Assembly (NCBI GenBank): GCA_012295275.1
Contig: CM022665.1
Location: 18,170,150-18,234,149 of the forward strand
Length of the DNA stretch: 64,000 nucleotides
Direction of reading: 5' to 3'
DNA from: Chrysomallon squamiferum
Taxonomy: Eukaryota; Mollusca; Gastropoda; Neomphalida; Peltospiridae
Positions 16,741-58,104 of this stretch are shown here, in pieces (position 1 is the first letter of the stretch; each line of letters starts with the position of its first letter). The notes under the pieces were generated by a model that saw nothing but the letters and a program-made list of their open reading frames with translations, was not told the origin of the DNA and did not search any database. Both the position numbers and the translations under genes were made by a program.

Positions 16741-16742
16741 CT

Positions 16743-32519: not shown

Positions 32520-32527
32520 TTACTATG

Positions 32528-32563
<36 letters not shown>

Positions 32564-33036: not shown

Positions 33037-33059
33037 ATTATTATTATTATTATTATTAT

Positions 33060-33097
<38 letters not shown>

Positions 33098-33098
33098 A
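33037..33098. repeat. (ATT)n(AGT)n compound microsatellite
   Basis: About eight ATT triplets followed by about twelve AGT triplets, expanded relative to copy A (about 9460-9495). Confidence 0.95.
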
Positions 33099-36000
33099 AA
33101 ACAAACAAACAACAACAACATTTAAATCTTATTTTCAGTTAAGTGACCACTTGATGACCTGTCCAAAAAAGCCTCAGGAATGTAAATTTAAACAAATTGG
33201 TTGTGATTTCACTGTGAGTATTTCTTTTAAATCTTTAAACTTTAGTATTATGTTATTCGTTTCTTTCTTTTTCTTTCTTATTTATTTACTTATTTCTCTA
33301 TCACTATTATTATTATTATTATTATTATTATTGTTATTATTTTGTATATCTATTGTCATTATTTTTATCATTATTACTATTATTATTACTACTACTACTA
33401 CTACTGTTATTATTATTATTACTGTTATCATCATTATTATTCAGATCCTTTTTTTATTAATTAACATCTTTATTATGACAAACCATATTATTCCATCTTT
33501 TTTTTCTCTCTATATATATCTGTAAAAATTTGTTTGAACAATTGAACAACGGGTTGATAAAAAAAACGATAAAAACGCACACAGGTTTATTGCAAATGGA
33601 ACAGATTTTCAAGTGTATCCAGTGTACAGATAAATGTATACATAATCTTTCTATTAAGCTTTAGCCTGTACATCTAGGTAAAAAAAATAAAATAAAGGGT
33701 TATGGTGAATATTCATAAAAATATATTTCACATAATCTTTAAGATCATTAATATTTCTCATTTAAAGTATTTATGAATGGAAAATGTCTATAATCTGGTA
33801 TTTAACATAGAAATGTATGGACATATAGATTTAAAAATGTTTACAGTTACTAAATTATTTTTATGGTCATTGTAAAGGGAAGTGCAGAAGAAATGGCACA
33901 TCATGAGAGTCATTTCATGTCCCATCATCTAGAACTATTAACTGTCTTTACAAATCCAATGGACTTACAACATCTGGATACTAAACAGAAAATACAGGTA
34001 ATAAAATTAAATACTAGATAAATATTATTTGATTTATTTATCTATTATTATTGTTGTTGTTCGATATTAAACATGGTCAAATAATTATTGTTATTTTTAT
34101 CATTATTTGTCATTATCATTATAATTTTCATTATTGTTGTTGGATATTAAACAGAAGATAGAGATACAAATATTTGTTTATTTATTGTTATTTTTAACAT
34201 TATTGTTGTTGTTATTTTTAAATGTATTATTCATATTTTTGTTTTGAAAGGAATTGACAGCAGAGAGAGAGATGAATTAAAAAAACAGCTGGCTGACGCT
34301 CAAAAGGAAAATGAGAACCTAAAGAATTCTTTAAAACATTTGGAGAAAACATTGAAGGATGTGAGGGTGAGAATTTATAATGCTTGTCATATTCCATGGC
34401 TAATGGTTAAATAATGTATTTACTGTAACTAAAATTGCTTGTTTTTTTAAATTACTTTTTCATTTCAGTTGAAGTAGATAAAGTAAAGATATCAAAAAAG
34501 AATGCAGATATTTGTATTTGATAACTATATACAGTTTTGGATACATACCAGGATTAATTGTGTATTATTTCCTTTCAGGTTAAGATGGTTGGCCACACTG
34601 AAAGGCTGATCCTTCTGGAGAGAAAGATGGAGGAGTTGCCACGTAAAGACACTTTTGAGGAACATGCCAGAGACATGGTGACACTGAAGGAAAAAATGAA
34701 CCAGTTACAACGACAGACATTATCACTGGAAGGTGGTGCAACAGTTGCCAGATATGGAACTTTGAATGCAATGGAGGGTTGGCAAAAAGGAGATGTATAT
34801 CTTAACTCTATTCATCTTACCATTTGCTTTTTATTAAAGGATAGGATGTTTTCAGTACTTGTTAGCCAGCTTCACTGATATGATGTATATATGTTACAGG
34901 AAATATGTATAATCAGGAAATGTGTATCATCCTGAAAATTTCAGAAAATGTTATTCACTCTTGAAACTGGGAATCATCCTCGGACTGTAGTTGATGGAGA
35001 ATTTCAGGAACAAGGCTAGATGATGACAGGCAAATGTGAACAAAATGGGCAACACTTAATTCCATTGTGGAGACTGGAGTTCTTCTGAAAGAGAAGAAAT
35101 TTGAGTCCAAGAGTCCATTCAGTTGTACTCCCTCTAGGAAATAAGCATGTCCTTACTGTGAGTTTGCTCTTTCTGTGGACCCTTGACTGTGTGTATTTCA
35201 AGGTTTCCCAGAGGTCATCATGAACTCAAGCCAGATTACTTTCAGTTCAATGATTAGACTTATTTTCTGACACTTTCAGGAATTATACATATTTCCTGTA
35301 ACATTTATGCTGTAGCCCATTTTGCAGTGATTTCATTTTAAATGGAATATACTTCCACTAATGGAATGTATTTTATGAGGCTATTTCCTAATCTAAACAT
35401 TTAAATACTCAGAATATAACTGTAATATTATTTTCAGTAAGAAGTAGAAAAAGTTACGAATTCATGCTTGTATATTCAAACTCTGTCTGTTTCATATGCA
35501 TACATACACTTACACATTCTCGTTAAGTTTGATTGGTTTTGGATACTGCCTGTGTCACTACTTATTTTACCATCACTTTGCCAGTCAGATCATACTAACA
35601 GTCTGTTCTGATAATCATTAATTTCAAGTTTTAAAATGTATACATATATATTAAACAATTCTTTAAATAACATGCTTCACACCATCACTGCTGAAAGGTA
35701 TTAGGAGCCTGTTGCAAGAAAATAAAAGAGACAGCAGATTTGAAGTAAATTACTTTATTGTCTCATGGAAATTTTGTTTTTGTAAAAACAGTATGATTAC
35801 AAGTAGTTTATAGAGATTAACACTGATTAATTTTCTTCTTTTGTTTCCTGTTAAAAAAAAATAAAATAAAAAAAAGTATAAAAAATAAAACGGTGGCTGA
35901 AAAAAGTCACAATTTAGTATAGGAAAACAAATCACAGGAAAAAAGTCACAATTTTTATATAAAAAAAACGTGTTGGTTTGTAGGGTATTGAATGCGGCAT

Positions 36001-36822
36001 CATAGTATGCTTGAGGTAATTGTTAAGCTTATTGATTAGATCAATTAGGTTAGATTAAAGAAATAGTCTTCATGCTGTGCAGGGGTGGTGCTTGGTTCTA
36101 GCTTATTCATTAGGATAGATTTAAACTAAGGGCTTCCTATTGTAAATGATTTATAAAATGTCGCAGGTTAAAAATGCGTTTCACTATGTATTCTCCAGCT
36201 TGCTCTAGTATCAGAAGTATGTTTAATATGGAAGTAATTCATAGCAATAAGGGTGATAACACAATCTGTTATGAGGGCTTCAAGTAATCCAAACATCAAC
36301 TTATAAAGTATAAATGTATGGTTCTAAAACAAAAACAAAAACAGCAATGTTCAGTACACTTCAGTGTTGCAGCTCATGAGATTAGTCATTACATTGAGAT
36401 ACATGTATGACTTAATTGTGTCATAATTTCATCTGAAGTTTTTATCACATGGAGTTAAGATTATTTATCTGACATTTGTTTTTCATTCTGTTATATCTGA
36501 TGACTAATTTTAACTTTCATCTGGAGCAGTTTTTATTTAGTGTCATTGCAAGTGAAAAGCTAAATTAACCAGTGCTATACAAACAAATAAGTAAATAAAT
36601 CATTAAATAAAAATGAAGAAACAGTACTGAAAACAAGACTGAATGGAAATGTTTTGCAGGATGGTGGGTGGGGTAAGAGATTTTACCATAGAGTAAGTAT
36701 GAATGATGGAGTCATTGCTGATTCAAAGTAAGAGTCACACGTCTGAAATTCTGAAAGTCAAAAAAAGTCATGAAAAAAAATACCATGCATTTTTTTTTTT
36801 TTTTTTTTTACTTTTATATTTT

Positions 36823-37201
36823 TTAATTCATCTGAAAAACCGCCAGATTCACCCGCTTTAAGCACTTTTCCGATTCCCCACGTTTCCTTAAAACGACCAA
36901 TCCAATGTCATTCAGTTTCTCACCATCCTCGTGAACAAGTTTCTCGGCAAAGCCTCGTGTTTTTTGAAGTAGCATTTCACCATTGATACGAACTTCAGGT
37001 CTAGCAGCCATTTGTCGAAACCATTTAATTAGCGCGGAGTCGACATCTTCAAACGTCACGTGCTTGATACGTGTCACACCGCCTTTTCTTGAATCGGGAT
37101 GCTCACCCTTCTCGATGGCCTCGATCACCTTAGATTTGATTTTTAAAATGTTATTTATTATTGTGCGGGGATCTTAAATCTCTCCGCCGTCAGACCCTTT
37201 C
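36823..37201 (-). pseudogene. Tigger transposase fragment, array unit 1
   Basis: psq/CENP-B HTH remnant with the shared 1-nt deletion after KLND and an extra deletion near 37170 that breaks the N-terminal frame. Confidence 0.75.
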
Positions 37202-38330
37202 TTCTTGCCAGGATTGATTTCACAATACATAATTATTTCATACTTCTTCTTATACTAAAAAGTCACATCTGAGCCGCTTCCCAAAATAATATGTTAATTC
37301 AACCAACCCACCCACACACGAGGCTAGTCACGTGCATTTCAGTATCCCAACACACAGCGCCAGTCTACATCCATGTCAATAGCTTGAAATAGCGGGTAGA
37401 TTGTGCGAGACTTTAGACGATTTTTCAACAAAGCGCTTTGACTTTTCCAAGAAACACTTTATTGATTTTTCCAAAATCGTGTCTGTGTATGTACATAACA
37501 CTAGTTGACGAGTGATTTCCTACTGACGACTTAACCTGCATCCTAACCGGACAGTTTTATTAATATTCAAGGAAAAGCAATGAAGTTATTTTCACTGAAT
37601 TGCACAGTGACTTGTTTAAAGCATCAAATGTATGGCTGGAAATTTTGTTTCTGTAAAAACAGTATGATTACAAGTAGTTTATAAATATTAACACTGATTA
37701 ATTTTCTGATTTTTTTCGCGACAAGGGTCTTAACTCCAATGATAAGATGTTATATTTTATGATTCCAGTGTGATCTAGTTTTGGTTTGGGTTCAGTGTTC
37801 TGTTCTTGCAGCTATATACACGTTGTAAATACATAAGAAGTTTACAAACATATACAGATGTTCAGTGAAACTTTGTTAATTCAAGCCGAAAGGGGTCAGG
37901 AAAATAGTTCACGATACTTGAGTGTTCGCATTTGAAATAAAAATAGTACTGTATAAATCAGAAAAAAAAAAAAAAAAAAAAAACAATAAATGACTGTAAC
38001 TTGAAGTATAACTTTAAAATTTAAAAAATCAAAATATAATAAAAAAATATATATAAATTGTTCTTACTAACTATAAAGCATGCTAAAACATCAGTGTTAA
38101 TCCATGATTATCTCTAAAACGAGAATTAATGAATGAATGAATGAATGTGCAATAATATATACCTTGATAAGAACGCACATTACTCATCAAATATAGTTTG
38201 TGAAGTGGCAGTGAGAAAACGTTTAAAATAATGTTAACATGCTTTTAAACTGTCACACACACTTCAGCTCTGTTGTGCTTAATGTAATTTGAAAATTAAA
38301 GTAAAAGTGACAGCAGCTGCTCGTAGAACT

Positions 38331-38732
38331 TTACGGTATGTCACTGCTGCCAATACTTTCAACAACCACTTTTATGTAAATTGTGTCATCTTTCAAGTAA
38401 TTTTTCTTTGGGTTTTCCAAAAGTGCATGTGAAGCAAACAGTGGACAACCAGATGCAATATTCATCTCAGACGTTGGCCGCTTGAAACTGCTGCTGCTTG
38501 GATCTGGGTGGAAGTGGTCTGTCACATCATTTTTGGTCGGACCTTGTAAAATGGCTGGGTGTAGAGGGAAAGGGTCCGGCCGGTGATAGCTTCATGCTTT
38601 CTTTTCATGTAGTCTTTGATTTTCCATATCAGTACACCGTCATAGTTGGCTGTTTCAAGAATCTGGAATCTCAGGTCCATTTCTGCTATTCTCAAATCAT
38701 AATGCCAATCTGTTAATCATCTGCTGCTACAT
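38331..38732 (-). pseudogene. Inverted TRAF MATH exon remnant, array unit 1
   Basis: The minus strand reads RIAEMDLRFQILETANYDGV, LIWKIKDYMKRKHEAITGR and LYTQPFY, then skips about 163 nt present in copy A (13639-13801) and shifts frame. DPSSSSFKRPTSEMNIASGC and KNYLKDDTIYIKVVVESIG follow in another frame and end at TAA. The exon start is also altered, with a stop soon after the acceptor. Confidence 0.85.
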
Positions 38733-40484
38733 CTAATAATAAAACAAAATGTTGATTATGAGTTATTTTGAACATGTATAAAATGTAGCATATGGCTGTA
38801 CAAATTCTTCCTGTGTTGTTACAATTTTAGATATTTTCATAACCTCAAATATCTGCAGTGTTAATTCATGGATTTGCTGTGAAAACGAAACAAGATGTTA
38901 AACTGTGGTGCAACACACAAATAATTGCTTCTGTTATGTGGCATGACACTGCAGCTGTGGCTGAAAAGTGGATGCTTTAAATATTGGTGCTGTAATGAGA
39001 AAATGTAATGTAGGAGTATTGAATGAATTGCCCTGATTTAGTTTGCAAAGGAAATGAGTACTTGTTGAAGGATTTTCTCAAGAACAAAGTTGAATCCTCC
39101 ATTTGACTCACAATAACCTGAACAACCAAAGATTGTCAAAGATCAGAGTATTGAACACTGATCAGCATGAAATGTGTGGGGGATTTCCAACTCAGTGAGT
39201 CTATAGGCATTTCTGCCTCTGAAGAAAAACATAGCAATACAAATGTAAAAAGAAATAATTAAGTATAGTTTTATCCCATTGTTCTAAATACAATTAACAA
39301 TAAAATCAGTAAATGTTAATTGTTTTTGCTAAATGATGCTGACATGGCAGGTTATAATTTCTCATAAAAATTAGTAACAGAATCATTTAGAATTGTAAAT
39401 AAAGTACTGTCATCTACTGCAAGTCAAATTTGCATTGATTTGAATGACGATCAAATATGAAGCTCACGTTTTACCTTCCTCCTTTCTTCTTTTGTTTCCT
39501 GTTAAAAAAAATAAAAAAAAAAAAGTATAAAAAATAAAACGGTGGCTGAAAAAAGTCACAATTTAGTATAGGAAAACAAATCACAGGAAAAAAAGTCACA
39601 ATTTTTATATAAAAAAAACGTGTTGGTTTGTAGGGTATTGAATGCGGCATCATAGTATGCTTGAGGTAATTGTTAAGCTTATTGATTAGATCAATTAGGT
39701 TAGATTAAAGAAATAGTCTTCATGCTGTGCAGGGGTGGTGCTTGGTTCTAGCTTATTCATTAGGATAGATTTAAACTAAGGGCTTCCTATTGTAAATGAT
39801 TTATAAAATGTCGCAGGTTAAAAATGCGTTTCACTATGTATTCTCCAGCTTGCTCTAGTATCAGAAGTATGTTTAATATGGAAGTAATTCATATAGCAAT
39901 AAGGGTGATAACACAATCTGTTATGAGGGCTTCAAGTAATCCAAACATCAACTTATAAAGTATAAATGTATGGTTCTAAAACAAAAACAAAAACAGCAAT
40001 GTTCAGTACACTTCAGTGTTGCAGCTCATGAGATTAGTCATTACATTGAGATACATGTATGACTTAATTGTGTCATAATTTCATCTGAAGTTTTTATCAC
40101 ATGGAGTTAAGATTATTTATCTGACATTTGTTTTTCATTCTGTTATATCTGATGACTAATTTTAACTTTCATCTGGAGCAGTCTTTTTATTTAGTGTCAT
40201 TGCAAGTGAAAAGCTAAATTAACCAGTGCTATACAAACAAATAAGTAAATAAATCATTAAATAAAAATGAAGAAACAGTACTGAAAACAAGACTGAATGG
40301 AAATGTTTTGCAGGATGGTGGGTGGGGTAAGAGATTTTACCATAGAGTAAGTATGAATGATGGAGTCATTGCTGATTGCTGATTCAAAGTAAGAGTCACA
40401 CGTCTGAAATTCTGAAAGTCAAAAAAAGTCATGAAAAAAAATACCATGCATTTTTTTTTTTTTTTTTTTTTACTTTTATATTTT

Positions 40485-40886
40485 TTAATTCATCTGAAAA
40501 ACCGCCAGATTCACCCGCTTTAAGCACTTTTCCGATTCCCCACGTTTCCTTAAAACGACCAATCCAATGTCATTCAGTTTCTCACCATCCTCGTGAACAA
40601 GTTTCTCGGCAAAGCCTCGTGTTTTTTGAAGTAGCATTTCACCATTGATACGAACTTCAGGTCTAGCAGCCATTTGTCGAAACCATTTAATTAGCGCGGA
40701 GTCGACATCTTCAAACGTCACGTGCTTGATACGTGTCACACCGCCTTTTCTTGAATCGGGATGCTCACCCTTCTCGATGGCCTCGATCACCTTAGATTTG
40801 ATTTTTAAAATGTTATTTATTATTGTGCGGGGGATCTTAAATCTCTCCGCCGTCAGACCCTTTCTTCTTGCCAGGATTGATTTCAC
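40485..40886 (-). pseudogene. Tigger transposase fragment, array unit 2
   Basis: 133-codon open frame, MKSILARRKGLTAERFKIPR ... then IGLVVLRKRGESEKC after the 1-nt deletion that destroys the SWTDRFKERWG segment. No catalytic domain. Confidence 0.78.
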
Positions 40887-41988
40887 AATACATAATTATT
40901 TCATACTTCTTCTTATACTAAAAAAGTCACATCTGAGCCGCTTCCCAAAATAATATGTTAATTCAACCAACCCACCCACACACGAGGCTAGTCACGTGCA
41001 TTTCAGTATCCCAACACACAGCGCCAGTCTACATCCATGTCAATAGCTTGAAATAGCGGGTAGATTGTGCGAGACTTTTAGACGATTTTTCAACAAAGCG
41101 CTTTGACTTTTCCAAGAAACACTTTATTGATTTTTCCAAAAATCGTGTCTGTGTATGTACATAACACTAGTTGACGAGTGATTTCCTACTGACGACTTAA
41201 CCTGCATCCTAACCGGACAGTTTTATTAATATTCAAGGAAAAGCAATGAAGTTATTTTCACTGAATTGCACAGTGACTTGTTTAAAGCATCAAATGTATG
41301 GCTGGAAATTTTGTTTCTGTAAAAACAGTATGATTACAAGTAGTTTATAAATATTAACACTGATTAATTTTCTGATTTTTCGCGACAAGGGTCTTAACTC
41401 CAATGATAAGATGTTATATTTTATGATTCCAGTGTGATCTAGTTTTGGTTTGGGTTCAGTGTTCTGTTCTTGCAGCTATATACACGTTGTAAATACATAA
41501 GAAGTTTACAAACATATACAGATGTTCAGTGAAACTTTGTTAATTCAAGCCGAAAGGGGTCAGGAAAATAGTTCACGATACTTGAGTGTTCGCATTTGAA
41601 ATAAAAATAGTACTGTATAAATCAAAAAAAAAAAAAAAAAAAACAATAAATGACTGTAACTTGAAGTATAACTTTAAAATTTAAAAAATCAAAATATAAT
41701 AAAAAATATATATAAATTGTTCTTACTAACTATAAAGCATGCTAAAACATCAGTGTTAATCCATGATTATCTCTAAAACGAGAATTAATGAATGAATGAA
41801 TGAATGTGCAATAATATATACCTTGATAAGAACGCACATTACTCATCAAATATAGTTTGTGAAGTGGCAGTGAGAAAACGTTTAAAATAATGTTAACATG
41901 CTTTAAACTGTCACACACACTTCAGCTCTGTTGTGCTTAATGTAATTTGAAAATTAAAGTAAAAGTGACAGCAGCTGCTCGTAGAACT

Positions 41989-42389
41989 TTACGGTATGTC
42001 ACTGCTGCCAATACTTTCAACAACCACTTTTATGTAAATTGTGTCATCTTTCAAGTAATTTTTCTTTGGGTTTTCCAAAAGTGCATGTGAAGCAAACAGT
42101 GGACAACCAGATGCAATATTCATCTCAGACGTTGGCCGCTTGAAACTGCTGCTGCTTGGATCTGGGTGGAAGTGGTCTGTCACATCATTTTGGTCGGACC
42201 TTGTAAAATGGCTGGGTGTAGAGGGAAAGGGTCCGGCCGGTGATAGCTTCATGCTTTCTTTTCATGTAGTCTTTGATTTTCCATATCAGTACACCGTCAT
42301 AGTTGGCTGTTTCAAGAATCTGGAATCTCAGGTCCATTTCTGCTATTCTCAAATCATAATGCCAATCTGTTAATCATCTGCTGCTACAT
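41989..42389 (-). pseudogene. Inverted TRAF MATH exon remnant, array unit 2
   Basis: Same 163-nt internal deletion. A one-base T loss beside it lets the C-terminal MATH frame read from MKLSPAGPFPSTPSHF into DHFHPDPSSSSFKRP, an out-of-frame artefact upstream. Confidence 0.85.
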
Positions 42390-44136
42390 CTAATCAAATA
42401 AAACAAAATGTTGATTATGAGTTATTTTGAACATGTATAAAATGTAGCATATGGCTGTACAAATTCTTCCTGTGTTGTTACAATTTTAGATATTTTCATA
42501 ACCTCAAATATCTGCAGTGTTAATTCATGGATTTGCTGTGAAAACGAAACAAGATGTTAAACTGTGGTGCAACACACAAATAATTGCTTCTGTTATGTGG
42601 CATGACACTGCAGCTGTGGCTGAAAAGTGGATGCTTTAAATATTGGTGCTGTAATGAGAAAATGTAATGTAGGAGTATTGAATGAATTGCCCTGATTTAG
42701 TTTGCAAAGGAAATGAGTACTTGTTGAAGGATTTTCTCAAGAACAAAGTTGAATCCTCCATTTGACTCACAATAACCTGAACAACCAAAGATTGTCAAAG
42801 ATCAGAGTATTGAACACTGATCAGCATGAAATGTGTGGGGGATTTCCAACTCAGTGAGTCTATAGGCATTTCTGCCTCTGAAGAAAAACATAGCAATACA
42901 AATGTAAAAAGAAATAATTAAGTATAGTTTTATCCCATTGTTCTAAATACAATTAACAATAAAATCAGTAAATGTTAATTGTTTTTGCTAAATGATGCTG
43001 ACATGGCAGGTTATAATTTCTCATAAAAATTAGTAACAGAATCATTTAGAATTGTAAATAAAGTACTGTCATCTACTGCAAGTCAAATTTGCATTGATTT
43101 GAATGACGATCAAATATGAAGCTCACGTTTTACCTTCCTCCTTTCTTCTTTTGTTTCCTGTTAAAAAAAAATAAAATAAAAAAAAGTATAAAAAATAAAA
43201 CGGTGGCTGAAAAAAGTCACAATTTAGTATAGGAAAACAAATCACAGGAAAAAAGTCACAATTTTTATATAAAAAAAACGTGTTGGTTTGTAGGGTATTG
43301 AATGCGGCATCATAGTATGCTTGAGGTAATTGTTAAGCTTATTGATTAGATCAATTAGGTTAGATTAAAGAAATAGTCTTCATGCTGTGTAGGGGGTGGT
43401 GCTTGGTTCTAGCTTATTCATTAGGATAGATTTAAACTAAGGGCTTCCTATTGTAAATGATTTATAAAATGTCGCAGGTTAAAAATGCGTTTCACTATGT
43501 ATTCTCCAGCTTGCTCTAGTATCAGAAGTATGTTTAATATGGAAGTAATTCATAGCAATAAGGGTGATAACACAATCTGTTATGAGGGCTTCAAGTAATC
43601 CAAACATCAACTTATAAAGTATAAATGTATGGTTCTAAAACAAAAACAAAAACAGCAATGTTCAGTACACTTCAGTGTTGCAGCTCATGAGATTAGTCAT
43701 TACATTGAGATACATGTATGACTTAATTGTGTCATAATTTCATCTGAAGTTTTTATCACATGGAGTTAAGATTATTTATCTGACATTTGTTTTTCATTCT
43801 GTTATATCTGATGACTAATTTTAACTTTCATCTGGAGCAGTCTTTTCATTTAGTGTCATTGCAAGTGAAAAGCTAAATTAACCAGTGCTATACAAACAAA
43901 TAAGTAAATAAATCATTAAATAAAAATGAAGAAACAGTACTGAAAACAAGACTGAATGGAAATGTTTTGCAGGATGGTGGGTGGGGTAAGAGATTTTACC
44001 ATAGAGTAAGTATGAATGATGGAGTCATTGCTGATTCAAAGTAAGAGTCACACGTCTGAAATTCTGAAAGTCAAAAAAAGTCATGAAAAAAAATACCATG
44101 CATTTTTGATTTTTTTTTTTTTTACTTTTATATTTT

Positions 44137-44541
44137 TTAATTCATCTGAAAAACCGCCAGATTCACCCGCTTTAAGCACTTTTCCGATTCCCCACGTTTC
44201 CTTAAAACGACCAATCCAATGTCATTCAGTTTCTCACCATCCTCGTGAACAAGTTTCTCGGCAAAGCCTCGTGTTTTTTGAAGTAGCATTTCACCATTGA
44301 TACGAACTTCAGGTCTAGCAGCCATTTGTCGAAACCATTTAATTAGCGCGGAGTCGACATCTTCAAACGTCACGTGCTTGATACGTGTCATCACCGCCTT
44401 TTTTCTTGAATCGGGATGCTCACCCTTCTCGATGGCCTCGATCACCTTAGATTTGATTTTTAAAATGTTATTTATTATTGTGCGGGGGATCTTAAATCTC
44501 TCCGCCGTCAGACCCTTTCTTCTTGCCAGGATTGATTTCAC
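44137..44541 (-). pseudogene. Tigger transposase fragment, array unit 3
   Basis: As in unit 2, but with HPDSRKKAVMTRIK in place of HPDSRKGGVTRIK through two compensating small insertions. Confidence 0.78.
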
Positions 44542-45650
44542 AATACATAATTATTTCATACTTCTTCTTATACTAAAAAAGTCACATCTGAGCCGCTTCC
44601 CAAAATAATATGTTAATTCAACCAACCCACCCACACACGAGGCTAGTCACGTGCATTTCAGTATCCCAACACACAGCGCCAGTCTACATCCATGTCAATA
44701 GCTTGAAATAGCGGGTAGATTGTGCGAGACTTTAGACGATTTTTCAACAAAGCGCTTTGACTTTTCCAAGAAACACTTTATTGATTTTTCCAAAATCGTG
44801 TCTGTGTATGTACATAACACTAGTTGACGAGTGATTTCCTACTGACGACTTAACCTGCATCCTAACCGGACAGTTTTATTAATATTCAAGGAAAAGCAAT
44901 GAAGTTATTTTCACTGAATTGCACAGTGACTTGTTTAAAGCATCAAATGTATGGCTGGAAATTTTGTTTCTGTAAAAACAGTATGATTACAAGTAGTTTA
45001 TAAATATTAACACTGATTAATTTTCTGATTTTTCGCGACAAGGGTCTTAACTCCAATGATAAGATGTTATATTTTATGATTCCAGTGTGATCTAGTTTTG
45101 GTTTGGGTTCAGTGTTCTGTTCTTGCAGCTATATACACGTTGTAAATACATAAGAAGTTTACAAACATATACAGATGTTCAGTGAAACTTTGTTAATTCA
45201 AGCCGAAAGGGGTCAGGAAAATAGTTCACGATACTTGAGTGTTCGCATTTGAAATAAAAATAGTACTGTATAAATCAGAAAAAAAAAAAAAAAAAAAAAA
45301 AAAAACAATAAATGACTGTAACTTGAAGTATAACTTTAAAATTTAAAAAATCAAAATATAATAAAAAATATATATAAATTGTTCTTACTAACTATAAAGC
45401 ATGCTAAAACATCAGTGTTAATCCATGATTATCTCTAAAACGAGAATTAATGAATGAATGAATGAATGTGCAATAATATATACCTTGATAAGAACGCACA
45501 TTACTCATCAAATATAGTTTGTGAAGTGGCAGTGAGAAAACGTTTAAAATAATGTTAACATGCTTTAAACTGTCACACACACTTCAGCTCTGTTGTGCTT
45601 AATGTAATTTGAAAATTAAAGTAAAAGTGACAGCAGCTGCTCGTAGAACT

Positions 45651-46052
45651 TTACGGTATGTCACTGCTGCCAATACTTTCAACAACCACTTTTATGTAAA
45701 TTGTGTCATCTTTCAAGTAATTTTTCTTTGGGTTTTCCAAAAGTGCATGTGAAGCAAACAGTGGACAACCAGATGCAATATTCATCTCAGACGTTGGCCG
45801 CTTGAAACTGCTGCTGCTTGGATCTGGGTGGAAGTGGTCTGTCACATCATTTTTGGTCGGACCTTGTAAAATGGCTGGGTGTAGAGGGAAAGGGTCCGGC
45901 CGGTGATAGCTTCATGCTTTCTTTTCATGTAGTCTTTGATTTTCCATATCAGTACACCGTCATAGTTGGCTGTTTCAAGAATCTGGAATCTCAGGTCCAT
46001 TTCTGCTATTCTCAAATCATAATGCCAATCTGTTAATCATCTGCTGCTACAT
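45651..46052 (-). pseudogene. Inverted TRAF MATH exon remnant, array unit 3
   Basis: Same structure as unit 1: 163-nt internal deletion, intact last strand and stop, altered exon start. Confidence 0.85.
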
Positions 46053-47794
46053 CTAATAATAAAACAAAATGTTGATTATGAGTTATTTTGAACATGTATA
46101 AAATGTAGCATATGGCTGTACAAATTCTTCCTGTGTTGTTACAATTTTAGATATTTTCATAACCTCAAATATCTGCAGTGTTAATTCATGGATTTGCTGT
46201 GAAAACGAAACAAGATGTTAAACTGTGGTGCAACACACAAATAATTGCTTCTGTTATGTGGCATGACACTGCAGCTGTGGCTGAAAAGTGGATGCTTTAA
46301 ATATTGGTGCTGTAATGAGAAAATGTAATGTAGGAGTATTGAATGAATTGCCCTGATTTAGTTTGCAAAGGAAATGAGTACTTGTTGAAGGATTTTCTCA
46401 AGAACAAAGTTGAATCCTCCATTTGACTCACAATAACCTGAACAACCAAAGATTGTCAAAGATCAGAGTATTGAACACTGATCAGCATGAAATGTGTGGG
46501 GGGATTTCCAACTCAGTGAGTCTATAGGCATTTCTGCCTCTGAAGAAAAACATAGCAATACAAATGTAAAAAGAAATAATTAAGTATAGTTTTATCCCAT
46601 TGTTCTAAATACAATTAACAATAAAATCAGTAAATGTTAATTGTTTTTGCTAAATGATGCTGACATGGCAGGTTATAATTTCTCATAAAAATTAGTAACA
46701 GAATCATTTAGAATTGTAAATAAAGTACTGTCATCTACTGCAAGTCAAATTTGCATTGATTTGAATGACGATCAAATATGAAGCTCACGTTTTACCTTCC
46801 TCCTTTCTTCTTTTGTTTCCTGTTAAAAAAAAATAAAATAAAAAAAAGTATAAAAAATAAAACGGTGGCTGAAAAAAGTCACAATTTAGTATAGGAAAAC
46901 AAATCACAGGAAAAAAGTCACAATTTTTATATAAAAAAAACGTGTTGGTTTGTAGGGTATTGAATGCGGCATCATAGTATGCTTGAGGTAATTGTTAAGC
47001 TTATTGATTAGATCAATTAGGTTAGATTAAAGAAATAGTCTTCATGCTGTGCAGGGGTGGTGCTTGGTTCTAGCTTATTCATTAGGATAGATTTAAACTA
47101 AGGGCTTCCTATTGTAAATGATTTATAAAATGTCGCAGGTTAAAAATGCGTTTCACTATGTATTCTCCAGCTTGCTCTAGTATCAGAAGTATGTTTAATA
47201 TGGAAGTAATTCATAGCAATAAGGGTGATAACACAATCTGTTATGAGGGCTTCAAGTAATCCAAACATCAACTTATAAAGTATAAATGTATGGTTCTAAA
47301 ACAAAAACAAAAACAGCAATGTTCAGTACACTTCAGTGTTGCAGCTCATGAGATTAGTCATTACATTGAGATACATGTATGACTTAATTGTGTCATAATT
47401 TCATCTGAAGTTTTTATCACATGGAGTTAAGATTATTTATCTGACATTTGTTTTTCATTCTGTTATATCTGATGACTAATTTTAACTTTCATCTGGAGCA
47501 GTCTTTTTATTTAGTGTCATTGCAAGTGAAAAGCTAAATTAACCAGTGCTATACAAACAAATAAGTAAATAAATCATTAAATAAAAATGAAGAAACAGTA
47601 CTGAAAACAAGACTGAATGGAAATGTTTTGCAGGATGGTGGGTGGGGTAAGAGATTTTACCATAGAGTAAGTATGAATGATGGAGTCATTGCTGATTCAA
47701 AGTAAGAGTCACACGTCTGAAATTCTGAAAGTCAAAAAAAGTCATGAAAAAAAATACCATGCATTTTTTTTTTTTTTTTTTACTTTTATATTTT

Positions 47795-48196
47795 TTAATT
47801 CATCTGAAAAACCGCCAGATTCACCCGCTTTAAGCACTTTTCCGATTCCCCACGTTTCCTTAAAACGACCAATCCAATGTCATTCAGTTTCTCACCATCC
47901 TCGTGAACAAGTTTCTCGGCAAAGCCTCGTGTTTTTTGAAGTAGCATTTCACCATTGATACGAACTTCAGGTCTAGCAGCCATTTGTCGAAACCATTTAA
48001 TTAGCGCGGAGTCGACATCTTCAAACGTCACGTGCTTGATACGTGTCACACCGCCTTTTCTTGAATCGGGATGCTCACCCTTCTCGATGGCCTCGATCAC
48101 CTTAGATTTGATTTTTAAAATGTTATTTATTATTGTGCGGGGGATCTTAAATCTCTCCGCCGTCAGACCCTTTCTTCTTGCCAGGATTGATTTCAC
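47795..48196 (-). pseudogene. Tigger transposase fragment, array unit 4
   Basis: Same 133-codon frame as unit 2. Confidence 0.78.
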
Positions 48197-49304
48197 AATA
48201 CATAATTATTTCATACTTCTTCTTATACTAAAAAAGTCACATCTGAGCCGCTTCCCAAAATAATATGTTAATTCAACCAACCCACCCACACACGAGGCTA
48301 GTCACGTGCATTTCAGTATCCCAACACACAGCGCCAGTCTACATCCATGTCAATAGCTTGAAATAGCGGGTAGATTGTGCGAGACTTTAGACGATTTTTC
48401 AACAACAAAGCGCTTTGACTTTTCCAAGAAACACTTTATTGATTTTTCCAAAATCGTGTCTGTGTATGTACATAACACTAGTTGACGAGTGATTTCCTAC
48501 TGACGACTTAACCTGCATCCTAACCGGACAGTTTTATTAATATTCAAGGAAAAGCAATGAAGTTATTTTCACTGAATTGCACAGTGACTTGTTTAAAGCA
48601 TCAAATGTATGGCTGGAAATTTTGTTTCTGTAAAAACAGTATGATTACAAGTAGTTTATAAATATTAACACTGATTAATTTTCTGATTTTTTTCGCGACA
48701 AGGGTCTTAACTCCAATGATAAGATGTTATATTTTATGATTCCAGTGTGATCTAGTTTTGGTTTGGGTTCAGTGTTCTGTTCTTGCAGCTATATACACGT
48801 TGTAAATACATAAGAAGTTTACAAACATATACAGATGTTCAGTGAAACTTTGTTAATTCAAGCCGAAAGGGGTCAGGAAAATAGTTCACGATACTTGAGT
48901 GTTCGCATTTGAAATAAAAATAGTACTGTATAAATCAGAAAAAAAAAAAAAAAAAAAACAATAAATGACTGTAACTTGAAGTATAACTTTAAAATTTAAA
49001 AAATCAAAAAATATAAAAAAAATATATATAAATTGTTCTTACTAACTATAAAGCATGCTAAAACATCAGTGTTAATCCATGATTATCTCTAAAACGAGAA
49101 TTAATGAATGAATGAATGAATGTGCAATAATATATACCTTGATAAGAACGCACATTACTCATCAAATATAGTTTGTGAAGTGGCAGTGAGAAAACGTTTA
49201 AAATAATGTTAACATGCTTTAAACTGTCACACACACTTCAGCTCTGTTGTGCTTAATGTAATTTGAAAATTAAAGTAAAAGTGACAGCAGCTGCTCGTAG
49301 AACT

Positions 49305-49706
49305 TTACGGTATGTCACTGCTGCCAATACTTTCAACAACCACTTTTATGTAAATTGTGTCATCTTTCAAGTAATTTTTCTTTGGGTTTTCCAAAAGTGC
49401 ATGTGAAGCAAACAGTGGACAACCAGATGCAATATTCATCTCAGACGTTGGCCGCTTGAAACTGCTGCTGCTTGGATCTGGGTGGAAGTGGTCTGTCACA
49501 TCATTTTTGGTCGGACCTTGTAAAATGGCTGGGTGTAGAGGGAAAGGGTCCGGCCGGTGATAGCTTCATGCTTTCTTTTCATGTAGTCTTTGATTTTCCA
49601 TATCAGTACACCGTCATAGTTGGCTGTTTCAAGAATCTGGAATCTCAGGTCCATTTCTGCTATTCTCAAATCATAATGCCAATCTGTTAATCATCTGCTG
49701 CTACAT
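49305..49706 (-). pseudogene. Inverted TRAF MATH exon remnant, array unit 4
   Basis: Same structure as unit 1. Confidence 0.85.
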
Positions 49707-51454
49707 CTAATAATAAAACAAAATGTTGATTATGAGTTATTTTGAACATGTATAAAATGTAGCATATGGCTGTACAAATTCTTCCTGTGTTGTTACAATT
49801 TTAGATATTTTCATAACCTCAAATATCTGCAGTGTTAATTCATGGATTTGCTGTGAAAACGAAACAAGATGTTAAACTGTGGTGCAACACACAAATAATT
49901 GCTTCTGTTATGTGGCATGACACTGCAGCTGTGGCTGAAAAGTGGATGCTTTAAATATTGGTGCTGTAATGAGAAAATGTAATGTAGGAGTATTGAATGA
50001 ATTGCCCTGATTTAGTTTGCAAAGGAAATGAGTACTTGTTGAAGGATTTTCTCAAGAACAAAGTTGAATCCTCCATTTGACTCACAATAACCTGAACAAC
50101 CAAAGATTGTCAAAGATCAGAGTATTGAACACTGATCAGCATGAAATGTGTGGGGGATTTCCAACTCAGTGAGTCTATAGGCATTTCTGCCTCTGAAGAA
50201 AAACATAGCAATACAAATGTAAAAAGAAATAATTAAGTATAGTTTTATCCCATTGTTCTAAATACAATTAACAATAAAATCAGTAAATGTTAATTGTTTT
50301 TTGCTAAATGATGCTGACATGGCAGGTTATAATTTCTCATAAAAATTAGTAACAGAATCATTTAGAATTGTAAATAAAGTACTGTCATCTACTGCAAGTC
50401 AAATTTGCATTGATTTGAATGACGATCAAATATGAAGCTCACGTTTTACCTTCCTCCTTTCTTCTTTTGTTTCCTGTTAAAAAAAAATAAAATAAAAAAA
50501 AGTATAAAAAATAAAACGGTGGCTGAAAAAAGTCACAATTTAGTATAGGAAAACAAATCACAGAAAAAAAAAGTCACAATTTTTATATAAAAAAAAACGT
50601 GTTGGTTTGTAGGGTATTGAATGCGGCATCATAGTATGCTTGAGGTAATTGTTAAGCTTATTGATTAGATCAATTAGGTTAGATTAAAGAAATAGTCTTC
50701 ATGCTGTGCAGGGGTGGTGCTTGGTTCTAGCTTATTCATTAGGATAGATTTAAACTAAGGGCTTCCTATTGTAAATGATTTATAAAATGTCGCAGGTTAA
50801 AAATGCGTTTCACTATGTATTCTCCAGCTTGCTCTAGTATCAGAAGTATGTTTAATATGGAAGTAATTCATAGCAATAAGGGTGATAACACAATCTGTTA
50901 TGAGGGCTTCAAGTAATCCAAACATCAACTTATAAAGTATAAATGTATGGTTCTAAAACAAAAACAAAACAGCAATGTTCAGTACACTTCAGTGTTGCAG
51001 CTCATGAGATTAGTCATTACATTGAGATACATGTATGACTTAATTGTGTCATAATTTCATCTGAAGTTTTTATCACATGGAGTTAAGATTATTTATCTGA
51101 CATTTGTTTTTCATTCTGTTATATCTGATGACTAATTTTAACTTTCATCTGGAGCAGTCTTTTCATTTAGTGTCATTGCAAGTGAAAAGCTAAATTAACC
51201 AGTGCTATACAAACAAATAAGTAAATAAATCATTAAATAAAAATGAAGAAACAGTACTGAAAAAACAAGACTGAATGGAAATGTTTTGCAGGATGGTGGG
51301 TGGGGTAAGAGATTTTACCATAGAGTAAGTATGAATGATGGAGTCATTGCTGATTCAAAGTAAGAGTCACACGTCTGAAATTCTGAAAGTCAAAAAAAGT
51401 CATGAAAAAAAATACCATGCATTTTTTTTTTTTTTTTTTTTACTTTTATATTTT

Positions 51455-51856
51455 TTAATTCATCTGAAAAACCGCCAGATTCACCCGCTTTAAGCACTTT
51501 TCCGATTCCCCACGTTTCCTTAAAACGACCAATCCAATGTCATTCAGTTTCTCACCATCCTCGTGAACAAGTTTCTCGGCAAAGCCTCGTGTTTTTTGAA
51601 GTAGCATTTCACCATTGATACGAACTTCAGGTCTAGCAGCCATTTGTCGAAACCATTTAATTAGCGCGGAGTCGACATCTTCAAACGTCACGTGCTTGAT
51701 ACGTGTCACACCGCCTTTTCTTGAATCGGGATGCTCACCCTTCTCGATGGCCTCGATCACCTTAGATTTGATTTTTAAAATGTTATTTATTATTGTGCGG
51801 GGGATCTTAAATCTCTCCGCCGTCAGACCCTTTCTTCTTGCCAGGATTGATTTCAC
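51455..51856 (-). pseudogene. Tigger transposase fragment, array unit 5
   Basis: Same 133-codon frame as unit 2. Confidence 0.78.
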
Positions 51857-52956
51857 AATACATAATTATTTCATACTTCTTCTTATACTAAAAAGTCACA
51901 TCTGAGCCGCTTCCCAAAATAATATGTTAATTCAACCAACCCACCCACACACGAGGCTAGTCACGTGCATTTCAGTATCCCAACACACAGCGCCAGTCTA
52001 CATCCATGTCAATAGCTTGAAATAGCGGGTAGATTGTGCGAGACTTTAGACGATTTTTCAACAAAGCGCTTTGACTTTTCCAAGAAACACTTTATTGATT
52101 TTTCCAAAATCGTGTCTGTGTATGTACATAACACTAGTTGACGAGTGATTTCCTACTGACGACTTAACCTGCATCCTAACCGGACAGTTTTATTAATATT
52201 CAAGGAAAAGCAATGAAGTTATTTTCACTGAATTGCACAGTGACTTGTTTAAAGCATCAAATGTATGGCTGGAAATTTTGTTTCTGTAAAAACAGTATGA
52301 TTACAAGTAGTTTATAAATATTAACACTGATTAATTTTCTGATTTTTCGCGACAAGGGTCTTAACTCCAATGATAAGATGTTATATTTTATGATTCCAGT
52401 GTGATCTAGTTTTGGTTTGGGTTCAGTGTTCTGTTCTTGCAGCTATATACACGTTGTAAATACATAAGAAGTTTACAAACATATACAGATGTTCAGTGAA
52501 ACTTTGTTAATTCAAGCCGAAAGGGGTCAGGAAAATAGTTCACGATACTTGAGTGTTCGCATTTGAAATAAAAATAGTACTGTATAAATCAGAAAAAAAA
52601 AAAAAAAAAAACAATAAATGACTGTAACTTGAAGTATAACTTTAAAATTTAAAAAATCAAAATATAATAAAAAATATATATAAATTGTTCTTACTAACTA
52701 TAAAGCATGCTAAAACATCAGTGTTAATCCATGATTATCTCTAAAACGAGAATTAATGAATGAATGAATGAATGTGCAATAATATATACCTTGATAAGAA
52801 CGCACATTACTCATCAAATATAGTTTGTGAAGTGGCAGTGAGAAAACGTTTAAAATAATGTTAACATGCTTTAAACTGTCACACACACTTCAGCTCTGTT
52901 GTGCTTAATGTAATTTGAAAATTAAAGTAAAAGTGACAGCAGCTGCTCGTAGAACT

Positions 52957-53356
52957 TTACGGTATGTCACTGCTGCCAATACTTTCAACAACCACTTTTA
53001 TGTAAATTGTGTCATCTTTCAAGTAATTTTTCTTTGGTTTTCCAAAAGTGCATGTGAAGCAAACAGTGGACAACCAGATGCAATATTCATCTCAGACGTT
53101 GGCCGCTTGAAACTGCTGCTGCTTGGATCTGGGTGGAAGTGGTCTGTCACATCATTTTGGTCGGACCTTGTAAAATGGCTGGGTGTAGAGGGAAAGGGTC
53201 CGGCCGGTGATAGCTTCATGCTTTCTTTTCATGTAGTCTTTGATTTTCCATATCAGTACACCGTCATAGTTGGCTGTTTCAAGAATCTGGAATCTCAGGT
53301 CCATTTCTGCTATTCTCAAATCATAATGCCAATCTGTTAATCATCTGCTGCTACAT
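52957..53356 (-). pseudogene. Inverted TRAF MATH exon remnant, array unit 5
   Basis: Same internal deletion, with two further single-base losses (ENPKK becomes ENQRK, and TTTTGG near 53157). A 141-codon plus-strand frame across it is purely antisense. Confidence 0.85.
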
Positions 53357-55098
53357 CTAATAATAAAACAAAATGTTGATTATGAGTTATTTTTTGAACA
53401 TGTATAAAATGTAGCATATGGCTGTACAAATTCTTCCTGTGTTGTTACAATTTTAGATATTTTCATAACCTCAAATATCTGCAGTGTTAATTCATGGATT
53501 TGCTGTGAAAACGAAACAAGATGTTAAACTGTGGTGCAACACACAAATAATTGCTTCTGTTATGTGGCATGACACTGCAGCTGTGGCTGAAAAGTGGATG
53601 CTTTAAATATTGGTGCTGTAATGAGAAAATGTAATGTAGGAGTATTGAATGAATTGCCCTGATTTAGTTTTGCAAAGGAAATGAGTACTTGTTGAAGGAT
53701 TTTCTCAAGAACAAAGTTGAATCCTCCATTTGACTCACAATAACCTGAACAACCAAAGATTGTCAAAGATCAGAGTATTGAACACTGATCAGCATGAAAT
53801 GTGTGGGGGATTTCCAACTCAGTGAGTCTATAGGCATTTCTGCCTCTGAAGAAAAACATAGCAATACAAATGTAAAAAGAAATAATTAAGTATAGTTTTA
53901 TCCCATTGTTCTAAATACAATTAACAATAAAATCAGTAAATGTTAATTGTTTTTGCTAAATGATGCTGACATGGCAGGTTATAATTTCTCATAAAAATTA
54001 GTAACAGAATCATTTAGAATTGTAAATAAAGTACTGTCATCTACTGCAAGTCAAATTTGCATTGATTTGAATGACGATCAAATATGAAGCTCACGTTTTA
54101 CCTTCCTCCTTTCTTCTTTTGTTTCCTGTTAAAAAAAAAAAAAATAAAAAAAAGTATAAAAAATAAAACGGTGGCTGAAAAAAGTCACAATTTAGTATAG
54201 GAAAACAAATCACAGGAAAAAGTCACAATTTTTATAAAAAAAACGTGTTGGTTTGTAGGGTATTGAATGCGGCATCATAGTATGCTTGAGGTAATTGTTA
54301 AGCTTATTGATTAGATCAATTAGGTTAGATTAAAGAAATAGTCTTCATGCTGTGCAGGGGTGGTGCTTGGTTCTAGCTTATTCATTAGGATAGATTTAAA
54401 CTAAGGGCTTCCTATTGTAAATGATTTATAAAATGTCAGGTTAAAAATGCGTTTCACTATGTATTCTCCAGCTTGCTCTAGTATCAGAAGTATGTTTAAT
54501 ATGGAAGTAATTCATAGCAATAAGGGTGATAACACAATCTGTTATGAGGGCTTCAAGTAATCCAAACATCAACTTATAAAGTATAAATGTATGGTTCTAA
54601 AACAAAAACAAAAACAGCAATGTTCAGTACACTTCAGTGTTGCAGCTCATGAGATTAGTCATTACATTGAGATACATGTATGACTTAATTGTGTCATAAT
54701 TTCATCTGAAGTTTTTATCACATGGAGTTAAGATTATTTATCTGACATTTGTTTTTCATTCTGTTATATCTGATGACTAATTTTAACTTTCATCTGGAGC
54801 AGTCTTTTCATTTAGTGTCATTGCAAGTGAAAAGCTAAATTAACCAGTGCTATACAAACAAATAAGTAAATAAATCATTAAATAAAAATGAAGAAACAGT
54901 ACTGAAAACAAGACTGAATGGAAATGTTTTGCAGGATGGTGGGTGGGGTAAGAGATTTTACCATAGAGTAAGTATGAATGATGGAGTCATTGCTGATTGC
55001 TGATTCAAAGTAAGAGTCACACGTCTGAAATTCTGAAAGTCAAAAAAAGTCATGAAAAAAAATACCATGCATTTTTTTTTTTTTTTTTTTTTATATTT

Positions 55099-55500
55099 TT
55101 AATTCATCTGAAAAACCGCCAGATTCACCCGCTTTAAGCACTTTTCCGATTCCCCACGTTTCCTTAAAACGACCAATCCAATGTCATTCAGTTTCTCACC
55201 ATCCTCGTGAACAAGTTTCTCGGCAAAGCCTCGTGTTTTTTGAAGTAGCATTTCACCATTGATACGAACTTCAGGTCTAGCAGCCATTTGTCGAAACCAT
55301 TTAATTAGCGCGGAGTCGACATCTTCAAACGTCACGTGCTTGATACGTGTCACACCGCCTTTTCTTGAATCGGGATGCTCACCCTTCTCGATGGCCTCGA
55401 TCACCTTAGATTTGATTTTTAAAATGTTATTTATTATTGTGCGGGGGATCTTAAATCTCTCCGCCGTCAGACCCTTTCTTCTTGCCAGGATTGATTTCAC
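55099..55500 (-). pseudogene. Tigger transposase fragment, array unit 6
   Basis: Same 133-codon frame as unit 2. Confidence 0.78.
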
Positions 55501-56604
55501 AATACATAATTATTTCATACTTCTTCTTATACTAAAAAAGTCACATCTGAGCCGCTTCCCAAAATAATATGTTAATTCAACCAACCCACCCACACACGAG
55601 GCTAGTCACGTGCATTTCAGTATCCCAACACACAGCGCCAGTCTACATCCATGTCAATAGCTTGAAATAGCGGGTAGATTGTGCGAGACTTTAGACGATT
55701 TTTCAACAAAGCGCTTTGACTTTTCCAAGAAACACTTTATTGATTTTTCCAAAAATCGTGTCTGTGTATGTACATAACACTAGTTGACGAGTGATTTCCT
55801 ACTGACGACTTAACCTGCATCCTAACCGGACAGTTTTATTAATATTCAAGGAAAAGCAATGAAGTTATTTTCACTGAATTGCACAGTGACTTGTTTAAAG
55901 CATCAAATGTATGGCTGGAAATTTTGTTTCTGTAAAAACAGTATGATTACAAGTAGTTTATAAATATTAACACTGATTAATTTTCTGATTTTTCGCGACA
56001 AGGGTCTTAACTCCAATGATAAGATGTTATATTTTATGATTCCAGTGTGATCTAGTTTTGGTTTGGGTTCAGTGTTCTGTTCTTGCAGCTATATACACGT
56101 TGTAAATACATAAGAAGTTTACAAACATATACAGATGTTCAGTGAAACTTTGTTAATTCAAGCCGAAAGGGGTCAGGAAAATAGTTCACGATACTTGAGT
56201 GTTCGCATTTGAAAAAAAAAAATAGTACTGTATAAAAAAAAAAAAAAAAAAAAAAAAAACAATAAATGACTGTAACTTGAAGTATAACTTTAAAATTTAA
56301 AAAATCAAAATATAATAAAAAATATATATAAATTGTTCTTACTAACTATAAAGCATGCTAAAACATCAGTGTTAATCCATGATTATCTCTAAAACGAGAA
56401 TTAATGAATGAATGAATGAATGTGCAATAATATATACCTTGATAAGAACGCACATTACTCATCAAATATAGTTTGTGAAGTGGCAGTGAGAAAACGTTTA
56501 AAATAATGTTAACATGCTTTAAACTGTCACACACACTTCAGCTCTGTTGTGCTTAATGTAATTTGAAAATTAAAGTAAAAGTGACAGCAGCTGCTCGTAG
56601 AACT

Positions 56605-57006
56605 TTACGGTATGTCACTGCTGCCAATACTTTCAACAACCACTTTTATGTAAATTGTGTCATCTTTCAAGTAATTTTTCTTTGGGTTTTCCAAAAGTGC
56701 ATGTGAAGCAAACAGTGGACAACCAGATGCAATATTCATCTCAGACGTTGGCCGCTTGAAACTGCTGCTGCTTGGATCTGGGTGGAAGTGGTCTGTCACA
56801 TCATTTTTGGTCGGACCTTGTAAAATGGCTGGGTGTAGAGGGAAAGGGTCCGGCCGGTGATAGCTTCATGCTTTCTTTTCATGTAGTCTTTGATTTTCCA
56901 TATCAGTACACCGTCATAGTTGGCTGTTTCAAGAATCTGGAATCTCAGGTCCATTTCTGCTATTCTCAAATCATAATGCCAATCTGTCAATCATCTGCTG
57001 CTACAT
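56605..57006 (-). pseudogene. Inverted TRAF MATH exon remnant, array unit 6
   Basis: Same deletion. It differs from the others by GATTGACAG for GATTAACAG near the exon start, leaving a longer open stretch (64 codons) through LIWKIKDYMKRKHEAITGR before the deletion junction. Confidence 0.85.
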
Positions 57007-57370
57007 CTAATAATAAAACAAAATGTTGATTATGAGTTATTTTGAACATGTATAAAATGTAGCATATGGCTGTACAAATTCTTCCTGTGTTGTTACAATT
57101 TTGGATATTTTCATAACCTCAAATATTTGCAGTGTTAATTCATGGATTTGCTGTGAAAACAAAACAAGATGTTAAACTGTGCTGCAACACACAAATAATT
57201 GCTTCTGTTATGTGGCATGACACTGCAGCTGTGGCCGAAAAGTGGATGCTTTAAATATTGGTGTTGTAATGAGAAAATGTAATGAATTGCCCTTATTTAG
57301 TTTGCAAAGGAAATCAGTATTTGTTGAAAGATTTTCTCAAGAACAAAGTTGAATCCTCCAGTTTACTCAC

Positions 57371-58100: not shown

Positions 58101-58104
58101 GTGC

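What the first reader, a model, noticed from the sequence alone, without database searches (positions are those of the whole stretch)
35830..57370. A 21.5-kb tandem array amplifies a chimera of an inverted TRAF exon and a Tigger transposase fragment
Six successive ~3.65-kb units share every junction, so one complex rearrangement (direct pieces of 14.5-15.0, 16.8-17.3 and 12.4-12.65 kb, plus an inverted 14.2-12.7 kb piece and unidentified DNA) preceded amplification. Units are nearly identical apart from homopolymer lengths and single indels, implying recent spread or homogenisation. A macrosatellite made from an innate-immune adaptor exon and a transposase DNA-binding domain is unusual.
Basis: partly seen in the sequence, partly recalled or inferred. 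Interest (0 to 1): 0.78.

Follow-up and report, generated by a model that had tools for sequence, protein, structure and literature searches.

The report
Tandem array of broken TRAF3 pieces
A damaged extra copy of an immune-signalling gene, with pieces of old jumping genes in it, has been repeated head to tail about six times in what looks like a deep-sea vent snail genome; this is an ordinary way for a genome to grow junk repeats, not a new kind of gene.

Summary
The array is real in the assembly: five full units of about 3.65 kb plus one truncated unit, 35832-57378. The genome is most probably Chrysomallon squamiferum (404,604,130 bp in 22 contigs; the paper has 15 linkage groups plus 7 unanchored contigs; an inference). 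Started elsewhere, the unit has the order of the nearby TRAF3-like gene: intron piece 12444-12648, an in-place inversion of about 12678-14313 carrying the MATH exon, a truncated dispersed repeat, 14536-15054, then a Tigger-like transposase fragment. A partial second copy of the gene lies just left of the array (32521-35842). Most shared blocks differ from the gene by about 2-8% substitutions and the Tigger fragments are sisters, so the source was a segmental duplication that already carried the transposon. One block differs by only 0.4%, suggesting gene conversion; another by 13.7%, unexplained. Units 1-5 differ mainly by indels (8 substitutions, 58 gaps over four adjacent pairs), as expected of nanopore consensus error. 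The exon is broken in all five units translated. Best reading: a small, probably functionless macrosatellite made by tandem duplication and unequal exchange. Copy number is unverified.

The parts
10535..13965 (+). Parental TRAF3-like gene (copy A): coiled-coil exons about 10535-10660, 10911-11036, 11254-11454 and MATH exon about 13435-13965; zinc-finger-like pieces lie upstream from ~7.0 kb
   Evidence: tblastn with the Gigantopelta aegis protein P0002; Pfam TRAF-mep_MATH 6.8e-44, zinc-finger matches upstream weak and below cut-off; best solved match TRAF3, 1kzz
12444..12648 (+). Parental block P1, present in the units; 26 of 190 substitutions from unit 2
12678..14313 (+). Parental block that is inverted in every unit
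14536..15054 (+). Parental block S; 2 substitutions in 501 from unit 2 over 14536-15037; its seven long matches in the searched genome are here and in the six units
16507..17316 (-). Tigger-like transposase fragment beside the parental gene; 16761-17316 is the part shared with the units
   Evidence: Pfam HTH_Tnp_Tc5 7.8e-12; extent by genomic copies; sister of the unit copies
32521..35842 (+). Partial second TRAF copy (B1) = A 8929-12520; holds the coiled-coil exons; runs into the array
35832..39482 (+). Unit 1
39483..43141 (+). Unit 2
43142..46803 (+). Unit 3
46804..50457 (+). Unit 4
50458..54109 (+). Unit 5
54110..57378 (+). Unit 6, truncated at offset ~3285 and diverged in its last ~400 bp
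35853..36302 (+). In unit 1 (repeated in the others): truncated dispersed repeat TE1, offset 22-471
   Evidence: 7.1% from the majority of 12 genomic copies
36302..36800 (+). In unit 1: block S
36836..37542 (-). In unit 1: Tigger-like fragment; 36836-37351 matches copy A's, the rest matches other genomic copies
   Evidence: Pfam on the unit 2 copy 21.2 bits, below the 22.2 cut-off
37637..37848 (+). In unit 1: block P1
37928..39507 (-). In unit 1: inverted block with the broken MATH exon; runs about 25 bp over the unit boundary used here
57376..57503 (+). Right-edge remnant of a further unit: 109 of 111 aligned bases equal to unit 2 offset ~1377-1487, with 17 extra bases, among them TTATAAGAATTGG, which the units lack and the fragment beside copy A resembles

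Best explanation
This is a small macrosatellite grown out of a dead segmental duplicate of a TRAF3-like gene. Shown: the 3.65-kb head-to-tail periodicity; a partial gene copy running into its left side; unit order equal to gene order with one in-place inversion; sister Tigger-like fragments; broken MATH exons; a diverged, truncated last unit. Inferred: (1) a stretch of the gene, from intron position ~8929 to at least the Tigger-like fragment at 17316, was duplicated about 24 kb downstream; (2) in that copy the MATH-exon segment was inverted and several stretches were lost; (3) a breakpoint joining the far side of the Tigger-like fragment to intron position ~12444 made a first tandem duplication; (4) unequal exchange between units expanded and homogenised it, while deletions of ~1.75 kb trimmed the partial units at both edges; (5) block S was recently exchanged with the parental gene by gene conversion. 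No product is expected from it.
For: Periodicity and junctions. Partial copy B1 = A 8929-12520 abutting the array. Left edge: B1's last 66 bases match unit offset 1821-1886 at 95.5%, then the sequence jumps to the unit start. Right edge: remnant of a further unit, 109 of 111 aligned bases. Divergence from A is similar for several blocks: 67/2206 (B1 core), 29/707 (inverted intron), 22/507 (Tigger). Tigger copies of A and of units 1 and 3 group together (support 0.978) at 8.8-9.3% over the whole alignment, against 15.2-20.6% to the 10 other fetched copies. The exon has stops in all three frames in 5 of 5 units translated. Unit 6 holds 14 private substitutions in alignment columns 2918-3325. Two of three pairs of informative within-array markers show all four combinations. 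For conversion of S: 2/501 against 22/507 for Tigger, Fisher P 3.6e-5, and against B1 core P 4.3e-4; longest substitution-free run 414 of 2554 positions, maximum 272 in 5000 permutations.
Against: P1 differs from A by 26/190, far more than its neighbours, and 14039-14313 by 21/274; B1's own parts range from 1.3% to 12.3% per 250 bp. One duplication date does not explain this. TE1 is 7.1% from the family majority, older than a ~4% duplication would allow for a later insertion, yet A has no TE1 at the matching place; A must have lost it or the source differed. S does not differ clearly from two short parts of the inverted block (Fisher P 0.087 and 0.038). In unit 6's tail 4 of 12 differences from unit 1 are shared with A and 8 are private, so the tail is not simply ancestral. 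The four-combination test rests on three markers, one in an A-rich stretch. A single recent template copy of S would look like conversion. Copy number and homogeneity rest on one R9 nanopore assembly.
Confidence: 0.8

Rival explanations
1. One reading: one complex template-switching event (chromoanasynthesis-like) assembled the unit from pieces of the gene locus, and only then was it amplified.
For: The units share their junctions. Missing stretches, an ~80-bp stretch without a match at the inversion (offset 2017-2097) and short shared bases at the edges fit replication-based repair as well as stepwise change.
Against: Blocks differ from the parent by 0.4% to 13.7%, which one recent event from one source does not give. 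Block order is otherwise that of the gene, and a collinear partial copy lies beside the array.
Confidence: 0.12
2. Assembly artefact: copy B1 and the array are the other haplotype, misjoined in tandem, or the unit number is wrong because nanopore reads did not span the array.
For: Highly heterozygous genome (1.38%), R9 nanopore reads of 3 kb and up, canu + smartdenovo. Adjacent interior units differ by 8 substitutions and 58 gaps, against 67 and 11 for A-B1, Fisher P 4e-20: consensus noise. B1 begins in an intron microsatellite next to a 293-bp repeat.
Against: No N in the window or in the 20 kb fetched on either side. A-B1 substitutions (3.0% in the core, 3.9% overall) exceed mean heterozygosity. 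In one search, which printed matches of 150 bp and more, the outer flanks of B1 and of the array do not continue as a copy of A's flanks, except for a transposon-end-like stretch with 18 mismatches in 148. Unit 6 and both edges differ in ways that a mechanical repetition would not produce.
Confidence: 0.12
3. The array is functional: transcribed from its + strand it gives antisense RNA to the MATH exon of the TRAF3-like gene, six-fold amplified, and tunes that gene through small RNA.
For: The exon segment is inverted relative to the parental gene in all six units and the exon pieces of unit 2 are 1.9-5.2% diverged. Tandem arrays made from a piece of a neighbouring gene can be transcribed (recalled for the Drosophila Hsp70 alpha-gamma element; the figure legend only names it as a non-coding RNA).
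Against: No expression or small-RNA data were available. No Rfam family reaches its gathering score in the window. Block S, the one unusually conserved part, lies outside the exon. Nothing shows selection.
Confidence: 0.04

Closest known systems
Human megasatellites made of interspersed transposable elements (PMC2588610; passages seen)
   Same: kb-scale units (one family has a 3.5-kb monomer) built from a repeating pattern of transposons, thought to have expanded by unequal crossing over
   Different: One of those families is spread over 11 chromosomes; here the array was seen at one place only, and the unit holds a gene fragment
Drosophila Hsp70B region (HDR16) and other duplicated transposon nests (PMC1794594; passages and figure legends seen)
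   Same: A nest of transposons tandemly amplified among duplicated genes
   Different: Different genes and transposons; no inverted exon is mentioned in the passages seen
Macrosatellite DXZ4 (PMC3081327; search listing with title and start of abstract only)
   Same: Head-to-tail array of large units
   Different: Its copy-number variation and expression are the subject of that paper; neither could be tested here
TRAF3 genes of molluscs (e.g. Gigantopelta aegis TRAF3-like, P0002)
   Same: Copy A's MATH exon is 86% identical over 83% of the query
   Different: The array copies are inverted fragments with stops and a ~163-bp gap and are not genes

Membership tests
Macrosatellite / megasatellite (kb-scale tandem repeat) | Head-to-tail repetition of a kb-scale unit at high identity | tested here: met
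   Five units of 3651-3662 bp and one of 3269 bp
Macrosatellite / megasatellite (kb-scale tandem repeat) | Copy number polymorphic between haplotypes | not testable with these tools
   One haploid assembly, no reads
Macrosatellite / megasatellite (kb-scale tandem repeat) | Homogenised interior with diverged edge | tested here: met
   Units 1-5 differ by 2-8 alignment substitutions, unit 6 by 22-26, many in its last 400 bp; short-read polishing may add to interior sameness
Segmental duplicate of a TRAF3-like gene | Collinear homology beyond single exons | tested here: met
   A 8929-12520 = 32521-35842 and, by blocks, A 12444-17316 in the units
Functional TRAF gene | Open MATH domain joined to upstream exons on one strand | tested here: not met
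   The array's MATH exon is on the opposite strand to B1, lacks ~163 bp and has stops in all three frames in 5 of 5 units translated
Tigger-like (Tc1/mariner, pogo) transposase | CENP-B/Tc5-type DNA-binding domain | tested here: met
   HTH_Tnp_Tc5 7.8e-12 beside copy A; 2.8e-4 and under the curated cut-off in unit 2
Tigger-like (Tc1/mariner, pogo) transposase | Catalytic DDE domain | not tested

The most novel reading that the evidence does not exclude
A dead, tandemly amplified fragment of TRAF3 is still in sequence contact with the gene 21-43 kb away: block S (and perhaps stretches of the Tigger fragment and of the inverted exon region) has been copied between gene and array by gene conversion, so the array acts as a reservoir that can feed sequence, or antisense RNA, into an immune-adaptor locus of a symbiont-hosting vent snail.
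Probability: 0.07. Interest if true: 0.5.

Novelty: new member of a known kind. Interest (0 to 1): 0.24.

Why it matters
It is a compact worked example of how a kb-scale satellite can start: segmental duplication, one inversion, transposon remnants and a tandem breakpoint, all readable because the parent and a flanking partial copy are still present. It also cautions that within-array indels in nanopore assemblies should not be read as unit history. Beyond that it is ordinary genome decay and carries no evident function.

Tried and rejected
Rejected: that the Tigger pieces of gene and array were independent insertions; the low BLAST identity (85%) is largely indels, and by substitutions they are sisters. 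Rejected: that TE1 is specific to the array; it is dispersed in the genome. Rejected: that block S is a dispersed repeat; of 13 matches the seven long ones are copy A and the six units, the other six are 33-51 bp (simple repeats and very common words are skipped by that tool). Looked for without result: tRNA (bacterial settings) and Rfam families at gathering score.

Led nowhere: counting MATH-domain genes in the genome (18 requests, none answered), searching for P1 and its left junction (3 requests) and for the right flank (2 requests) elsewhere in the genome. So it is not known whether copy A is the only TRAF3-like gene, or whether the unit junctions occur elsewhere. One search, with unit 1 as query, scored 39 of 369 candidates, did not list the array's own units, and outside the window showed only pieces of the two dispersed repeats; it is weak evidence against other copies. 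Paper searches gave context only; 'TRAF' occurs 0 times in the main text of the three snail genome papers looked at. No search was made for a published description of this particular array beyond these.
Full report
What is there. The window's self-comparison shows one tandem array at 35832-57378: units of 3651, 3659, 3662, 3654 and 3652 bp and a truncated one of 3269 bp. The window lies at 18.17-18.23 Mb of contig C1 of a genome of 404,604,130 bases in 22 contigs. The nearest named protein to the TRAF exon is TRAF3-like of the vent snail Gigantopelta aegis, 86% identical over 83% of the query. The scaly-foot snail paper reports 15 linkage groups and seven unanchored contigs, 22 in all, and a 407.8-Mb polished nanopore assembly before scaffolding (PMC7142155; passages, sections). 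I infer that the genome is Chrysomallon squamiferum; no call names it.

Unit anatomy, as offsets from 35832. 22-471: the left part of a dispersed repeat; that it is a DNA transposon with terminal inverted repeats is my reading of the alignment and was not tested. 472 to ~990: block S, equal to 14536-15037 beside the gene, up to 15054 in units 2 and 3. ~1013-1711: a transposase fragment on the minus strand; Pfam gives HTH_Tnp_Tc5 for the copy beside the gene (7.8e-12) and a sub-threshold match for unit 2. ~1806-2017: block P1, equal to 12444-12648. From 2097 on: the inverse of 14313-12678, lacking ~163 bp of the MATH exon; it runs about 25 bp over the unit boundary used here.

Why one inversion is enough. 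A tandem unit has no natural start. Started at P1, the order is 12444-12648, inverted 14313-12678, repeat TE1, 14536-15054, Tigger-like fragment equal to 16761-17316. That is the order beside the gene with the MATH segment flipped in place, about 15054-16761 absent, and TE1 where the gene has 14313-14536 (one search finds only a low-complexity match there). Immediately left of the array lies a collinear partial copy of the gene, 32521-35842 = 8929-12520, with its coiled-coil exons. Its last 66 bases match unit offset 1821-1886 at 95.5% and then the sequence jumps to the unit start: a partial unit with ~1.76 kb missing (inference). At the right edge unit 6 stops at offset ~3285 and is followed by 57376-57503, which equals unit offset ~1377-1487 at 109 of 111 aligned bases but has 17 extra bases, in part like the fragment beside copy A: a remnant of a further unit.

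Divergence. Substitutions against the gene: B1 core 67 of 2206 (3.0%), whole B1 flank 95 of 2436 (3.9%), inverted intron 29 of 707 (4.1%), exon parts 11 of 210 and 3 of 158, 14040-14180 3 of 107, 14039-14313 21 of 274 (7.7%), Tigger 22 of 507 (4.3%), S 2 of 501 (0.4%), P1 26 of 190 (13.7%); the outer B1 part, 8929-9884, 51 of 882. In a tree of 13 rows (copy A, units 1 and 3, ten other genomic copies) the Tigger fragments of gene and array group together with support 0.978; over the whole alignment they differ by 8.8-9.3%, against 15.2-20.6% to the ten others. So the transposon fragment was there before the duplication. S stands out (Fisher P 3.6e-5 against Tigger, 4.3e-4 against B1 core, but 0.087 and 0.038 against two short inverted sub-blocks), and the longest substitution-free run, 414 of 2554 compared positions, exceeds the maximum of 272 in 5000 permutations. 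Gene conversion is the simplest reading; a recent copy of S alone is not excluded. P1 is too diverged, and TE1 too old (7.1% from the majority of 12 copies, themselves 4.6-8.2%), for a single clean scenario; both are left unexplained.

Within the array. Pairs among units 1-5 show 2-8 substitutions and 8-16 gap events in the multiple alignment; unit 6 shows 22-26 substitutions, 14 of them in columns 2918-3325. In pairwise alignments the four adjacent interior pairs sum to 8 substitutions and 58 gaps, against 67 and 11 for A-B1 (Fisher P 4e-20) and 73 and 11 for another duplicated pair in the window. The blocks compared between gene and unit 2 are less clean as a yardstick: 116 substitutions and 39 listed gaps, ends included, still far from 8 to 58. 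Such an indel excess is what uncorrected nanopore error looks like, and the assembly was polished with Racon five times and Pilon twice, which can also pull near-identical units together. So the true divergence of units 1-5 may be near zero, but neither that nor the unit count is secure. Three informative markers remain; two of their three pairs show all four combinations, weak support for exchange between units.

Function. In 5 of 5 units translated the exon has stops in all three frames (unit 6 was not translated there, but its exon matches are split in the same way). B1 and copy A differ at 12 codons in 441 compared bases, 9 of them amino-acid changes, so at least one of them seems to evolve without much constraint; no formal rate test was run. 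No RNA family reaches its gathering score. I find no sign of function; antisense regulation of the neighbouring gene stays possible but unsupported.

Comparison. Human megasatellites with repeating patterns of interspersed transposons, including a 3.5-kb monomer family, are attributed to unequal crossing over (PMC2588610, passages), and Drosophila has tandem arrays of transposon nests among duplicated genes, for example at Hsp70B (PMC1794594, passages and legends). This array is a small member of that kind.

Noticed in passing
13955-14040: Copy A's MATH exon ends KDA-stop and lacks about the last 19 residues (DDTIYIKVVVE...) that G. aegis TRAF3-like and, oddly, the broken array copies keep; several small gaps cluster here, so it may be a real truncation or a consensus error.
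   Followed up: partly
21125-24241 and 25410-28523: A second tandem duplication, 3.1 kb, 73 substitutions and 11 gaps apart (2.3% by the indel-guarded count), lies between the gene and the array.
   Followed up: partly
58136-59638: A 1.5-kb minisatellite of about 51 copies of a 30-bp unit starts right after a TAA microsatellite, 0.75 kb from the array's right edge.
   Followed up: no
3930-4222 and 32217-32507: A 293-bp repeat, 97% alike, ends 14 bp before the left border of the partial gene copy B1.
   Followed up: no
12444-12648 and its copies in the units: This block is three to four times more diverged between gene and array than the B1 flank and inverted intron beside it (26 of 190).
   Followed up: partly
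17362-17539 and 57990-58141: A similar transposon-end-like stretch followed by an AAT microsatellite lies beyond both Tigger fragments, 18 mismatches in 148 aligned bases.
   Followed up: no
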